This document shows positions 15,709 through 22,486 of a stretch of 64,000 nucleotides of DNA, in pieces. Each line of letters begins with the position of its first letter. Position 1 is the first letter of the stretch. A program made the position numbers and the translations under genes. The notes beneath the pieces are model-generated. The model searched no databases. It had not been told where the DNA came from and worked only from the letters and a program-made list of their open reading frames with translations. The DNA lies in contig JAPHSX010000032.1 of the NCBI GenBank assembly GCA_026196575.1, positions 1-64,000 on the forward strand. The letters run 5' to 3'. The DNA is from Gammaproteobacteria bacterium (lineage in GTDB: Bacteria; Pseudomonadota; Gammaproteobacteria; Thiohalomonadales; Thiohalomonadaceae).

Positions 15709-16293
15709 TTACCTCCCTGCCGCGCCCCTTGAAGGCACCGCTGCTGGCTGGTCGTGTTTCCGGCCGGGGATGTCGCCCGCGTGCATCTGCCCGAAATCGA
15801 GGCGCGTGACGGCAAGTGGGATGTCAGAATTGCCCGTCTCATTCAATACAACCTCCCGAGCAAGTGTAGGGTGGTCAGGAGAGAGGGCCTGCGCCCCCGT
15901 GAAAAAATCGTCCCAAGGCACACTGGCAAATCGCTCGCCGTCTAGTACATCCAGGCATAGAATCTGTATAGATCCGATCACCTGGCGTACCTGCCACTCT
16001 TTCAGGCAAGAGTCATTCAGTACCGGTTGTAGGTATTTTATTAGATGCGTGTCGGATATTTCTGAAACATGGTGTTTGGCCAGATAAGCCAAAAACCGCT
16101 CCGCACGCAGGGTATACCAGTAGTGTGGCTTCTGTGATAGTTTCTTTTTTATCAGAGTGTTACGAAACAGATTCCAGTTGATATTGAAATGTCGTATGGA
16201 GATGTTCTGCTCGGAACAGGGTGAATGCCGGGACGGAGAAGTGGTGGAATGACAGCGGTTAAAGTCCATTTTCCACCCCGGTTGATGCGACAC
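15709..16293 (-). pseudogene. Truncated integron integrase (N-terminal SAM-like domain only)
   Basis: Residues from about 38 onward (NWNLFRNTLIKKKLSQKPHY, then RAERFLAYL, LKEWQVRQVIGSIQILC and PWDDFFTGAQALSPDHPTLA) match the N-terminal core-binding domain of integron integrases. After HPTLAREVV the frame runs into unrelated sequence. No catalytic domain, so none of the R-H-R-Y residues, is present here. Its position and direction (facing away from the cassettes) are those of intI. The array is therefore not expected to be rearranged by its own enzyme unless another integrase is present elsewhere. Confidence 0.8.
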
Positions 16294-17746: not shown

Positions 17747-18091
17747 ATGGAAACATTCATATATACACTAATAATGGCAGCCATTACTGGGCTTACATTT
17801 ATCGCTTATAAACACCCAAATGGATATAAAAAGATATTTAATTTTATCTATTTTTTAAATTTTTTAATCTATGCAGTAGTGAGCGCATGGAGTGGTGCTA
17901 TATATTTATTTTGGTCAAACATAAATGAAAATATAACTGAAGAACAAATCAATATAATTGAACCAATATTTGATAAATTACATGTACCAACATTGGAAAC
18001 CAATTTGATATTTTGGGGCTCAATGATATATCTGCTTTTATTAAGTTTTTTGCCAACGCTACTAGAACATGAAAATAAGCAAAACACATAA
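17747..18091 (+). CDS. Integron cassette small membrane protein (cassette 3)
   Basis: The 114-residue protein has three predicted membrane helices: residues 3-20, about 32-57 (FNFIYFLNFLIYAVVSAWSG) and about 85-105 (LIFWGSMIYLLLLSFLPTLL). An acidic loop of about 25 residues separates the second and third helices. AAGGA precedes ATG 17747. I recognise no family. The stop codon lies within the attC R' box. Confidence 0.7.
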   Translation: METFIYTLIMAAITGLTFIAYKHPNGYKKIFNFIYFLNFLIYAVVSAWSGAIYLFWSNINENITEEQINIIEPIFDKLHVPTLETNLIFWGSMIYLLLLSFLPTLLEHENKQNT

Positions 18092-18585: not shown

Positions 18586-18656
18586 ACCTAACACGGCGCT
18601 CCAGCCGACCGGCAGCTTCGCTCTGCATTGCCGTCGCCTGAGCTGGAGCGTTAGGG
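18586..18656 (+). other. attC site 4
   Basis: ACCTAAC to GTTAGGG, 71 bp. Arms GCGCTCCAGC and GCTGGAGC pair. The R' box complements GTTAGGT opening cassette 4. Confidence 0.87.
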
Positions 18657-18681
18657 AAGTGAAAGGAGTAAATCTCGAATC

Positions 18682-19572
18682 ATGAAACTTGTATCAACTA
18701 CAGCACTTTCAAAATCGCTAGGGATTTCTACGAAAGAGCTTTTTGCGCACCTTCTCAATCGAGGATTTATTGAAAAAGATAATGAGTCATGGGCATTAAC
18801 AGCAGAAGGACAAGAAAACGGTGGTGAGTACAAAGAGTCAATGCAGCATGGAAAATATATTGTCTGGCCTGACAGTCTTGAGTTAAACGTCACAAACGGC
18901 GAGGATGACGGGGAGCAAACCAAAATGGTTACTGCGACTGCAGTCGGTCGGTCGTTTGAATTATCTGCGAATAAAATCAATTTTATACTTTCAGAGTTAG
19001 GCTGGCTAAACAAAGGGATCAAGGGCTGGGTTCTAACAGAGCAAGGTAAAAAACAAGGTGGTTTGCAAGCAGAAGATAAGAAGTCTGGCATTCCCTTTGT
19101 TAGATGGCCAGAAGCTATTATCGAGTCGAAGTCATTAAAGGAAACAATTGGGCACGTAAAGGGAACGGAAGAAGAGCAGAAATCAGAACCAAGAGATAAT
19201 GAACCCAATGACGTAGGATTCAGGGAAAAATTCGAGGCAAAGCACCGTGCGGCAGATGGCCATTTTGTTCGCTCCAAAGCTGAAATGCTAATTGATAATT
19301 GGCTTTATATGGCAGAGATAGTTCATGCTTATGAACGCAAGCTGCCTATCGAAGAAGATGTCTACTCCGATTTCTACATTCCTACTGGCAAGGTATACAT
19401 TGAGTATTGGGGCTACGAGAATGATCCAAAGTATCTAGCCCGCAAGAAGAAAAAAATAGAACTGTATAAAAAGTACGGTTTCAACCTCATAGAGCTTCAA
19501 GATAAAGAGGTGCAGAACCTGGATGATATTTTGCCAAGAATGTTGCTCAAGTATGGAGTTCAAGCATATTAA
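18682..19572 (+). CDS. Cassette protein: two winged-helix-like repeats plus Vsr/DUF559-like PD-(D/E)XK domain (cassette 5)
   Basis: The 296-residue protein contains two tandem repeats of about 60 residues (about 1-65 and 79-145). Each has a helix-turn-helix-like start (LSKSLGISTKELFAHLL; VGRSFELSANKINFILSEL), then W-x-LT-x-x-G-x-x-x-GG and a (I/V)xWP ending. After an acidic linker, residues 190-296 carry RSKAEMLIDNWL, DFYIPTGKVYIEYWG, RKKKKIELYKKYGFNLIELQ. This is the layout of Vsr/DUF559-like PD-(D/E)XK nuclease domains often found on helicases. The putative core Asp and Glu are present; the Lys may be supplied by the following helix. Role inferred: DNA-binding nuclease, perhaps defence. AAGGAG lies 11 bases upstream. 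Confidence 0.78.
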   Translation: MKLVSTTALSKSLGISTKELFAHLLNRGFIEKDNESWALTAEGQENGGEYKESMQHGKYIVWPDSLELNVTNGEDDGEQTKMVTATAVGRSFELSANKINFILSELGWLNKGIKGWVLTEQGKKQGGLQAEDKKSGIPFVRWPEAIIESKSLKETIGHVKGTEEEQKSEPRDNEPNDVGFREKFEAKHRAADGHFVRSKAEMLIDNWLYMAEIVHAYERKLPIEEDVYSDFYIPTGKVYIEYWGYENDPKYLARKKKKIELYKKYGFNLIELQDKEVQNLDDILPRMLLKYGVQAY

Positions 19573-19574
19573 TG

Positions 19575-19661
19575 CCCTAACAAGGAAAATTCACACGGAC
19601 AGCCAAAAGCGCCGCTCCTTCGTCGCTATGCTTTAGCTGCCGGTGATTTGCGGCGTTATGT
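19575..19661 (+). other. attC site 5
   Basis: CCCTAAC to GTTATGT, 87 bp. Arms CGGACAGC and GCTGCCGG pair. The R' box complements GTTAGGG opening cassette 5. Confidence 0.85.
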
Positions 19662-19688
19662 GAATAAAGCGAGATCGTAGAAGAAAAG

Positions 19689-19725
19689 AAGGGGTCAGGT
19701 CTTGACATTACGCTTTTTGGTTTTG
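19689..19725 (+). repeat. 37-bp dispersed repeat, copy 1
   Basis: The repeat begins AAGGGGTCAGGTCTTGACAT and ends CGCTTTTTGGTTTTG. It matches 21568-21604 at 36 of 37 positions. It resembles terminal sequence of REP-associated or IS200-like elements, an inference from memory. Confidence 0.75.
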
Positions 19726-19970: not shown

Positions 19971-20468
19971 ATGAACTCAGTTGATACCATTAGTCCTGAA
20001 CAAGGTATGTTTGAGCTATCACTCATGAATGGAGAAGCTTCAATTTATAATTTCGATGATCTGGTTGTTGAATCCATAAACAGGGGGGTTGCTCCAGAAA
20101 TTATTACGCGATTAAGGGAATTATGGGACAAAACAAAATATATCGCTGGCGAGATAATATCCGTAGGTAAGATTATAGTACAAAAAATTTTCGAATTTCT
20201 TAAAGCAAATCCTAAATTAACTATAGGGCTTGCTCTTGGCGCAGCAATTTCCGCTCTCATTGCAGGTATTCCATTTATTGGCCCATTAGTTGCTCCTGTT
20301 TCCACGACCATATCAACTTTGTATGGTGCTGGAGTTGGTGCAGCTATGGAGAAAGGCGATTTATCTGGTTCACCCTATTCCGCAGCTATAGAATTAGCAT
20401 CAAAATTTTTTGAGTTACTAAAATCAATATTTAATGCAGTCAAGGAATATTGGCTTGCAGAAAAATAA
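19971..20468 (+). CDS. Cassette 7 first gene: glycine-zipper membrane protein
   Basis: The 165-residue protein has an acidic N-terminal region and an amphipathic helix (about 50-78). A hydrophobic glycine-patterned segment spans about 83-125 (LTIGLALGAAISALIAGIPF then IGPLVAPVSTTISTLYGAGV). The C-terminal helix (FFELLKSIFNAVKEYWLAEK) is amphipathic. No signal peptide is evident. GGAGAG precedes ATG 19971. It is followed 35 bp later by a second gene with a similar glycine/alanine-rich membrane-prone core in the same cassette, which suggests a co-expressed pair. The composition resembles pore-forming or membrane-perturbing proteins, but no family is recognised. Confidence 0.75.
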   Translation: MNSVDTISPEQGMFELSLMNGEASIYNFDDLVVESINRGVAPEIITRLRELWDKTKYIAGEIISVGKIIVQKIFEFLKANPKLTIGLALGAAISALIAGIPFIGPLVAPVSTTISTLYGAGVGAAMEKGDLSGSPYSAAIELASKFFELLKSIFNAVKEYWLAEK

Positions 20469-20503: not shown

Positions 20504-21460
20504 ATGTGGACTGATAAATTAAAAAAATTAGCTCAAGAAACACAAGAGAAAATTAAAAATGAAGTACCACATGCCAAAGAGTTAATTGGAAAAACAGCTT
20601 TAACTGCTGCTGAGTTAGGAAAAAATGCTAGCACAACTATTTATGGAAAGTGTACTCAAGTAGTGGATGCGAGCAATGAAATTGCAAGAAGTAAAGCAAC
20701 TCAACAGCTGTTGTCAAAAACTAAAGATGGGTTTACTAAAGCTGCATCTAATACAATTGAAATCGTATCTAATACCGCCAATAAAACTTCTGTATTATTT
20801 CGTCAAACTGTACAAGAAGGACATTTGAGAAATGTCTTTCAAAAATTAAGCTATCAAGAAAAATCTGAAAGACTTATTTCACTTACACAAGAAGATATTG
20901 ACAAAGCTGAGGGAAAAACTGAAGAAGAAAAAATAAATAATGCGATTGATAAACTTAAAAACAGAGATAAGGTTGGTGTAACTGGTGAGATATTAGGCGT
21001 GGCTGGAGGTGCTGCTGCTGGTGCTGCCGCTGCTGGGGCTGTGGCTGCAGCAGCAGGTGCTACCACAATTTTAGGTTCTACCACACTTGGAAGTGTTTTG
21101 GGCGGTGTATTCGTTGCGTCCACACCTGTTGGTTGGGTGGTTGGTTCAGCCGCTGCCGCTGCAGCATTAGGATATGGTATTACAAAATTAGTTCACTCAG
21201 GCGGTAAGCAAGACCAAGTCCGCAATGATATTGTAACCCGACTATATGATAAAATTGATAATCTTAGAAAAGCTAAAATTTCAGCAAACCAACTTAATGA
21301 ATTGAAAATCTTACTGCCAGTTGCGATTGAAAATAAGTTAATAACGGAAGAACAGGCAGACCGAATGATAAATCTTATTAATTTAAATAAATTGGACATT
21401 GAAATAGCATTAAATAGAATTAAATCACTAAAAATACCTGTAGTGATACAACAAAATTAA
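20504..21460 (+). CDS. Cassette 7 second gene: coiled-coil protein with Ala/Gly-rich membrane core
   Basis: The 318-residue protein has a Lys/Thr-rich helical N-terminal half (about 1-155) with repeated short KxA/TA patterns reminiscent of LEA-like or apolipoprotein helices. An Ala/Gly-rich hydrophobic hairpin spans about 165-228 (VAGGAAAGAAAAGAVAAAAG; ASTPVGWVVGSAAAAAALGY). The C-terminal helical region (about 235-318, including LYDKIDNLRKAKISANQLNE) ends it. AAGGAG lies 8 bases before ATG 20504. The gene is within one cassette with 19971-20468 and ends at attC 7. Function unknown; a two-component membrane-active module is plausible. Confidence 0.75.
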   Translation: MWTDKLKKLAQETQEKIKNEVPHAKELIGKTALTAAELGKNASTTIYGKCTQVVDASNEIARSKATQQLLSKTKDGFTKAASNTIEIVSNTANKTSVLFRQTVQEGHLRNVFQKLSYQEKSERLISLTQEDIDKAEGKTEEEKINNAIDKLKNRDKVGVTGEILGVAGGAAAGAAAAGAVAAAAGATTILGSTTLGSVLGGVFVASTPVGWVVGSAAAAAALGYGITKLVHSGGKQDQVRNDIVTRLYDKIDNLRKAKISANQLNELKILLPVAIENKLITEEQADRMINLINLNKLDIEIALNRIKSLKIPVVIQQN

Positions 21461-21567: not shown

Positions 21568-21604
21568 AAGGGGTCAGGTCTTGACATTGCGCTTTTTGGT
21601 TTTG
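21568..21604 (+). repeat. 37-bp dispersed repeat, copy 2
   Basis: It is identical to 19689-19725 except for one base. It is followed by about 90 bp that ends in CATTATGTGAAGAGG, which resembles a decayed cassette boundary (compare GTTATGTGAATA at 19655). Confidence 0.75.
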
Positions 21605-21709
21605 GGTCAATGGGGCATGAGTTGTTGATTGCGCAGACACCGACCATATTGGTTCGCTGTGCTTTGTTTGCGCCGCACAGCTTCGTCATTATGTGAAGAG
21701 GAATATCGG

Positions 21710-22486
21710 ATGAAATACGAAGATTATCGAAGGAATCACGTTATCGTGCCTGGCAGGGAAGATGCGCTTGATGCATTCATTCGGCAGGATTACAAGAGAA
21801 TGCAGCACAAGGTGAAAAATGCCTACAGTTCTAATAGCGAAGACGCTCTTACATGGTCCTGCTTCGACATGCTTGAACACCTGCCTTTATTAAACAAAAT
21901 CGAAGCGCTAGATGATATTTTATCTGATTCATATGCTGGGAACAGCCCTATATCTTTATCTGAAAAAGGCCTCAAAAACAGTGACGTATCAATCCATGTA
22001 GGTAAAAGATACGACGCCCCAAATATAAATGAATCAACTGAAGTCGATGCAAGTATCGAAACACCGAAGGCCTTGATATTTATAGAGGCAAAGCTATATT
22101 CCGCTGTTAGCCCCGCATGCCCACCAGAAAAGCCGCATGATCAAATTGCTAGAAAGCTTCGCATAGGTTTGGATACAGCTTATCAATCAAGCAGTGAGTT
22201 CTATTTTATCTTCTTGGATATTGCTCCTCTGGAAAAAATGAACCAACGAAGGTCAAAAGCGGAAGTCATGGAAAAATCTTCCGGTGGGTACAACGACAAG
22301 TGGAAGAGTGCCTGGCTATTCAGCTACTACAAAAAGGGGCGTGCTAGTAGTCTCAAACCACTGGAGAAAGCGCTTGAGGGTGTAGCCGAAAAAGCGAGTA
22401 TCCCAAAAATTGCTGCAAATATGGGGTGGCTTACTTGGGCCGATTTATTCAAATGTACTTTGCGGGCAGCCATTAATGCCAAGTAA
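21710..22486 (+). CDS. PD-(D/E)XK nuclease-like protein at the end of the cassette array
   Basis: The 258-residue protein contains ESTEVDASIETPKALIFIEAK at about residues 104-124, spaced as the PD-(D/E)XK active site: Asp, then E-A-K in a hydrophobic strand. An upstream Glu-containing helix (SEDALTWSCFDMLEHL) fits the first conserved helix. A likely C-terminal positioning region includes WLTWADLF. ATG 21710 is preceded by a GAAGAGG ribosome site; a longer frame to 21629 starts within repeat debris. No attC follows, so it is either the last degenerate cassette or flanking DNA. Likely a restriction-like nuclease; target unknown. Confidence 0.75.
   Translation: MKYEDYRRNHVIVPGREDALDAFIRQDYKRMQHKVKNAYSSNSEDALTWSCFDMLEHLPLLNKIEALDDILSDSYAGNSPISLSEKGLKNSDVSIHVGKRYDAPNINESTEVDASIETPKALIFIEAKLYSAVSPACPPEKPHDQIARKLRIGLDTAYQSSSEFYFIFLDIAPLEKMNQRRSKAEVMEKSSGGYNDKWKSAWLFSYYKKGRASSLKPLEKALEGVAEKASIPKIAANMGWLTWADLFKCTLRAAINAK

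What the first reader, a model, noticed from the sequence alone, without database searches (positions are those of the whole stretch)
18682..19572. Cassette protein with two tandem winged-helix-like repeats and a Vsr/DUF559-like nuclease fold
The first 145 residues contain two copies of a module with HTH-like start, WxLTxxGxxxGG and a (I/V)xWP ending. The C-terminal 105 residues have E-helix, D-strand, IEYWG and a Lys-rich helix as in PD-(D/E)XK domains normally attached to helicases. A free-standing cassette version with duplicated DNA-binding repeats is an unusual architecture.
Basis: partly seen in the sequence, partly recalled or inferred. Interest (0 to 1): 0.6.

Follow-up and report, generated by a model that had tools for sequence, protein, structure and literature searches.

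The report
Integron cassette encoding candidate anti-phage nuclease
This gene sits in a mobile gene cassette and encodes a predicted DNA-cutting enzyme with two copies of a small DNA-binding module; it belongs to a widespread, still untested candidate anti-virus family (PDC-S69), so it is a well-defined member of a known kind, not something new.

Summary
The ORF at 18682-19572 encodes 296 residues with two homologous N-terminal modules (profile-profile E 3.9e-16; Smith-Waterman score 98 against 25 ± 4.9 in 20,000 shuffles) and a C-terminal domain predicted to have the Vsr-type PD-(D/E)XK fold (I-Bth0305I Z 11.2, Vsr Z 10.2). E201 and D230 are invariant and E241 nearly so. "Cassette" is also right: the gene fills an integron cassette (about 18651-19655). 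In Thiorhodospira sibirica the same 1.02 kb (85% identical) begins at the predicted recombination point and includes the attC.

The architecture is not unusual. At least 309 genomic stretches encode relatives, and the 80 best, from many bacterial phyla, nearly all keep it. The whole protein matches PADLOC's single-gene phage-defence candidate PDC-S69 (E 9.8e-113). I found no paper that characterises it.

Most likely it is a DNA nuclease: the two winged-helix modules bind DNA and the Vsr-like domain nicks or cuts it, probably as single-gene anti-phage defence. The defence role is inferred; neighbouring defence genes are only weakly enriched. The N-terminal module also ends PLD-type and DUF2726 proteins of plasmids and a filamentous phage, so it looks like a general nuclease add-on.

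The parts
18682..19572 (+). PDC-S69-family protein, 296 aa
   Evidence: intact ORF; full-length PADLOC PDC-S69 match, E 9.8e-113
18651..19655 (+). integron gene cassette (about 1005 nt) bounded by predicted G^TT recombination points; holds this single gene plus its attC
   Evidence: homology to Thiorhodospira sibirica (L016, 85%) covers 18651-19667 and starts at the predicted cut
18682..18891 (+). winged-helix-like module 1 (residues 1-70), KilAC-like
   Evidence: hhalign with module 2 E 3.9e-16; PF03374 in 66 of 71 relatives; model
18907..19131 (+). winged-helix-like module 2 (residues 76-150)
   Evidence: MerR-type winged helices such as RacA Z 6.3
19168..19218 (+). low-confidence linker (residues 163-179)
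   Evidence: pLDDT below 50
19219..19569 (+). Vsr-like PD-(D/E)XK nuclease domain (residues 180-296)
   Evidence: I-Bth0305I Z 11.2, Vsr Z 10.2, TnsA Z 8.3; PADLOC HEAT_CxxC_PDDEXK E 3.6e-12
19282..19284 (+). E201, helix Glu (position of Vsr E25), 71 of 71
19369..19371 (+). D230, catalytic Asp candidate (position of Vsr D51), 71 of 71
19402..19404 (+). E241, second acidic residue (E-Y-W in place of E-x-K), 70 of 71; Q in three Vibrio relatives
18587..18656 (.). upstream attC site (belongs to the preceding cassette)
   Evidence: bottom strand folds with z -3.4; scan; sequence
19575..19661 (.). attC site of this cassette
   Evidence: fold z -2.4; conserved in L016 and L017; sequence
15709..16293 (-). 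truncated integron-integrase remnant at the head of the array
   Evidence: 90% identical over 50 aa to the integrase ORF at the edge of contig C29; Phage_int_SAM_4 E 2.4e-5

Best explanation
The gene is the single payload of an integron cassette. It encodes a DNA endonuclease of the PDC-S69 family: two tandem winged-helix modules bind double-stranded DNA, and a C-terminal Vsr-type PD-(D/E)XK domain (E201, D230, E241, metal-dependent) nicks or cuts it. There is no partner methyltransferase in the cassette, so self/non-self discrimination must come from the target itself, for example modified bases, branched or replicating DNA, or a site missing from the host. The likely role is single-gene anti-phage or anti-plasmid defence spread by integron recombination. 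Shown here: ORF, duplication, fold prediction, conserved acidic residues, cassette boundaries, family membership. Inferred: DNA binding, cleavage, target choice, defence.
For: Full-length PDC-S69 match, E 9.8e-113. Vsr and I-Bth0305I fold with E201 and D230 invariant and E241 in 70 of 71. KilAC-like winged-helix modules; the same module is fused to PLD-type and DUF2726 proteins. attC sites and cassette-bounded homology in two other genomes. Patchy distribution: full-length in 5 of 369 sampled genomes of the class, none in the 19 same-genus or same-family genomes searched. Neighbours in other genomes include type IV and type I restriction genes, GmrSD and other PADLOC candidates. Cassettes of chromosomal integrons are known to carry anti-phage systems (PMC12409362).
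Against: No phage test is on record in the library searched. Defence-gene enrichment next to the family is weak: at most 11 of 119 immediate neighbours against about 4 of 102 distal genes at E below 1e-50. The canonical catalytic Lys is replaced by Trp, and three Vibrio members carry Q for E241. Many copies sit alone among ordinary genes, for example between rplQ and uvrA in L002.
Confidence: 0.55

Rival explanations
1. A DNA-repair or recombination nuclease rather than a defence enzyme: like Vsr or a Holliday-junction resolvase it nicks mismatches or branched DNA, and in Methylococcales it works with the helicase IV-like protein encoded just upstream.
For: Best fold matches include Vsr and archaeal Hjc; PHROG Holliday-junction resolvase match E 7.3e-5; helicase with a related nuclease insert directly upstream in 7 Methylococcales loci; many isolated chromosomal copies.
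Against: Very patchy distribution and cassette mobility do not fit a housekeeping repair role; the helicase link is confined to one order; full-length match to a defence candidate model.
Confidence: 0.25
2. A free-standing homing endonuclease: tandem small DNA-binding modules plus an EDxHD/Vsr nuclease, which promotes its own spread.
For: Closest fold is the homing endonuclease I-Bth0305I; tandem ~60-aa DNA-binding modules plus EDxHD/Vsr are described for phage intron homing endonucleases (PMC12350094).
Against: Relatives have no shared insertion site or intron context; two scans of viral contigs found no relative; in the window it moves as an integron cassette, which needs no homing.
Confidence: 0.1
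3. A transcription factor with a nuclease-derived but inactive C-terminal domain, akin to phage antirepressors with KilAC domains.
For: KilAC (PF03374) and Ant PHROG matches of the N-terminal modules; a Photobacterium relative (L008) lacks recognisable E201 and E241, and Vibrio copies have Q at 241.
Against: Acidic residues are kept in almost all members; no full-length phage copies found; the same module is attached to other nuclease-like proteins.
Confidence: 0.1

Closest known systems
PADLOC PDC-S69 (single-gene phage-defence candidate)
   Same: Matches the profile over its whole length, E 9.8e-113
   Different: Nothing structural; here it lies in an integron cassette
Vsr endonuclease, DUF559 and EDxHD nucleases (PD-(D/E)XK superfamily)
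   Same: Predicted fold; E in the first helix and D in the first core strand at the Vsr positions
   Different: Free-standing with two N-terminal winged-helix modules; E-Y-W where the classical motif has E-x-K; no significant DUF559 match for the window protein
Nuclease domain inserted in helicase IV-like UvrD proteins of Methylococcales
   Same: 35% identity over 110 columns, same E, D and E
   Different: There it is an insert in a helicase
NUMOD-type homing endonucleases with CapR-like modules and an EDxHD/Vsr domain (PMC12350094)
   Same: Tandem small DNA-binding modules followed by a Vsr-like nuclease
   Different: Different modules; not intron-encoded; no common insertion site seen
PLD-type and DUF2726 proteins of plasmids and an inovirus with the same C-terminal module
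   Same: Module homologous to module 1, E 4e-11 to 5e-18
   Different: One module, at the C-terminus, on an unrelated catalytic domain

Membership tests
PDC-S69 | full-length match to the PADLOC profile | tested here: met
   residues 3-296 on profile 5-289 of 289, E 9.8e-113
PDC-S69 | anti-phage activity | not testable with these tools
   no published test found
PD-(D/E)XK superfamily, Vsr-like | core alpha/beta fold | tested here: met
   I-Bth0305I Z 11.2, 91 aligned, rmsd 2.4; Vsr Z 10.2, 106 aligned, rmsd 3.8
PD-(D/E)XK superfamily, Vsr-like | conserved acidic catalytic residues | tested here: met
   E201 and D230 in 71 of 71, E241 in 70 of 71
PD-(D/E)XK superfamily, classical motif | catalytic Lys two residues after the second acid | tested here: not met
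   W243 in 71 of 71; Vsr and DUF559 also lack it (established knowledge), so this excludes only the classical motif
DUF559 (PF04480) | match to the Pfam model | tested here: inconclusive
   one of 71 members at E 0.0091, window protein none
KilAC / ANT (PF03374) | match above the curated cut-off | tested here: met
   28.3 bits against 25.3, but only profile 23-69 of 108; 66 of 71 relatives at E 0.01 or better
KilAC antirepressor | attached to a phage antirepressor N-terminal domain | tested here: not met
   attached to a nuclease-like domain
Integron gene cassette | one gene between attC sites with folding bottom strands | tested here: met
   z -3.4 upstream, -2.4 downstream
Integron gene cassette | moves as a unit bounded by the recombination points | tested here: met
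   homology in L016 and L017 includes the attC; in L016 it starts at the predicted cut
Homing endonuclease | located in an intron, an intein or a constant insertion site | tested here: not met
   no common neighbour in 87 loci beyond related genera

The most novel reading that the evidence does not exclude
The ~65-residue W-x-LT-x2-G-x3-GG...WP module is an unnamed, interchangeable DNA-targeting unit that has been joined independently to three unrelated catalytic folds (Vsr-like, DUF2726, PLD) on mobile elements; the duplicated form would define a compact single-protein restriction enzyme that needs no methylase and that integrons distribute.
Probability: 0.3. Interest if true: 0.6.

Novelty: new member of a known kind. 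Interest (0 to 1): 0.36.

Why it matters
It gives an untested defence candidate a clear domain model, named residues to mutate and natural mobility as a cassette, so its function can be tested directly. It adds another chromosomal integron to the places where candidate defence genes travel, and it points to a small DNA-binding module shared by several nuclease-like families that Pfam covers only through a partial KilAC match.

Tried and rejected
Solved-structure search by sequence gave nothing for P0001 or A2 and only weak unrelated rows for A1. Two viral-contig scans found no relative, so a phage origin was not pursued; in GenBank phages only the N-terminal module matched, in six Vibrio phages. 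Rfam found nothing relevant in the array. An attC scan of the relatives flagged only L017 and L020 above threshold, so most relatives are not obviously cassettes. Defence-island enrichment was tested with a distal control and is not convincing. 'PDC-S69' is in no paper held.

Full report
1. The observation. The ORF at 18682-19572 (+) is intact and encodes 296 residues. Its N-terminal half is a true duplication. Profile-profile comparison of residues 1-70 with 76-150, using 71 relatives, gives probability 98.8 and E 3.9e-16 over 70 columns, while comparisons of either module with later segments give probability below 0.1. In the window protein alone the local alignment score is 98 against a shuffle mean of 25.0 (sd 4.9, maximum 58 of 20,000), and all 71 relatives show the repeat. 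Cross-matches between the two halves also appear in ordinary blastp against relatives.

2. Structure. AlphaFold2 with 71 sequences gives mean pLDDT 82 and pTM 0.39, so the domains are good but their relative placement is not known. Two units of two helices and a small beta wing are followed by a linker (163-179, pLDDT below 50) and an alpha/beta domain. Foldseek alone gives nothing below E 0.001; its best hit is the I-Bth0305I catalytic domain, E 6.8e-3, probability 1.00. Re-alignment of those hits gives I-Bth0305I Z 11.2 (91 aligned, rmsd 2.4), Vsr Z 10.2, TnsA Z 8.3, and Hjc, VRR-NUC and Bax1 around 7. Matches of the modules are MerR-type winged helices at Z 4 to 6, which is only suggestive. 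E201 and D230 are invariant, E241 is in 70 of 71, and W243, Y262 and R189 are invariant. By sequence, E201 and D230 lie where Vsr has E25 and D51 (Vsr positions from my own knowledge). The usual Lys two residues after the second acid is a Trp. Three Vibrio relatives have Q in place of E241, and a Photobacterium relative (L008) has lost more of the motif.

3. The family. A scan of GTDB genomes found 309 stretches that encode relatives. The best 80 (53-87% identity) come from Gammaproteobacteria, Zetaproteobacteria, Desulfobacterota, Campylobacterota, Cyanobacteria, Chloroflexota, Bacillota and others, nearly all free-standing at about 290-330 aa. In a sample of 369 genomes of the window's class only 5 hold a full-length copy, the window's own included, and none of the 19 same-genus or same-family genomes searched has one. 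PADLOC holds the family as PDC-S69; the window protein matches over its whole length with E 9.8e-113. I found no paper naming PDC-S69. PDC models are described as phage-defence candidates (PMC11514479). A preprint on defences embedded in other immune systems, which I take from memory to be the source of the PDC candidates, is not held here but is cited in PMC12255303.

4. The cassette. The array from about 16.37 to 21.53 kb has attC-type sites at about 16816, 17644, 18587, 19575, 19836 and 21465, and a poorly folding candidate at 18091. In shuffled sequence the scan gives about 0.03 hits per 8.5 kb at score 22 or more; four sites reach that. The site upstream of this gene scores 20, and the site downstream was not picked up by the scan, so both rest on their sequence ends, folding and conservation. 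The strongest evidence is comparative. DNA homology to Thiorhodospira sibirica (L016, 85%) covers 18651-19667, beginning exactly at the predicted G^TTAGGG cut and including the attC, and ends there. In a Thiotrichaceae MAG (L017) the same cassette at 74% lies between attC-like sites. In both, the next gene is a homologous small protein of one neighbour cluster, read here as nuclease-related (NERD) from its sequence and the Pfam tally. In the window the first ~24 nt after the attC resemble the start of that unit and then break off. The integrase next to the array is a remnant (15709-16293, -) that is 90% identical over 50 aa to the integrase ORF at the edge of contig C29; intact integrases are on C17 and C29.

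5. Neighbours elsewhere. In seven Methylococcales loci the gene directly follows a helicase IV-like UvrD protein; the one compared carries a related nuclease insert. In several Bacillaceae it lies beside type I restriction or GmrSD-type genes. At E below 1e-50, at most 11 of 119 immediate neighbours match PADLOC models against about 4 of 102 distal genes; by my estimate this is not significant.

6. The module. The first module also forms the C-terminus of PLD-type proteins from Halomonas, Alteromonas and Pandoraea plasmids and a Vibrio inovirus, and of a DUF2726 protein from a Vibrio plasmid (hhalign E 4e-11 to 5e-18). Pfam covers it only through a partial KilAC match. This supports a DNA-targeting role and is the part least described so far.

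7. Verdict. It is a new, integron-borne member of the PDC-S69 candidate defence family. DNA cleavage is likely (about 0.75), an anti-phage role plausible (about 0.5). Chromosomal integrons are already known to bank anti-phage systems (PMC12409362), so the location fits current knowledge.

Noticed in passing
window 21707-22486 (+): Another gene just after the last attC carries a D...EAK pattern typical of PD-(D/E)XK nucleases (weak REase-ARP E 0.064, PADLOC PDC-M15A E 6e-6).
   Followed up: partly
window 20504-21460 (+): Alanine/glycine-rich protein with a weak PADLOC LeoBC match (E 3.9e-8), paired with a small hydrophobic protein at 19971-20468.
   Followed up: no
window 19689-19725 and 21568-21604: 37-nt direct repeat (97%) ending at a 27-nt inverted repeat (19725-19751/19778-19804), like a small transposon remnant that may have broken the next cassette.
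   Followed up: no
window 15709-16293 (-): Integrase remnant with an N-terminal stretch shared with the integrase ORF at the edge of contig C29; the genome also has an intact integrase on C17.
   Followed up: partly
L097 901-1692, L098 970-1719, L099 934-1704, L100 1000-1698, L101 991-1698: The same ~65-aa winged-helix-like module ends PLD-type and DUF2726 proteins of plasmids and a filamentous Vibrio phage.
   Followed up: yes
L008 5989-6876: Photobacterium damselae plasmid relative keeps both modules but has a degenerate nuclease motif.
   Followed up: partly
L007 4863-5666: Nostoc plasmid relative has a Cys/His-rich N-terminus in place of module 1.
   Followed up: no
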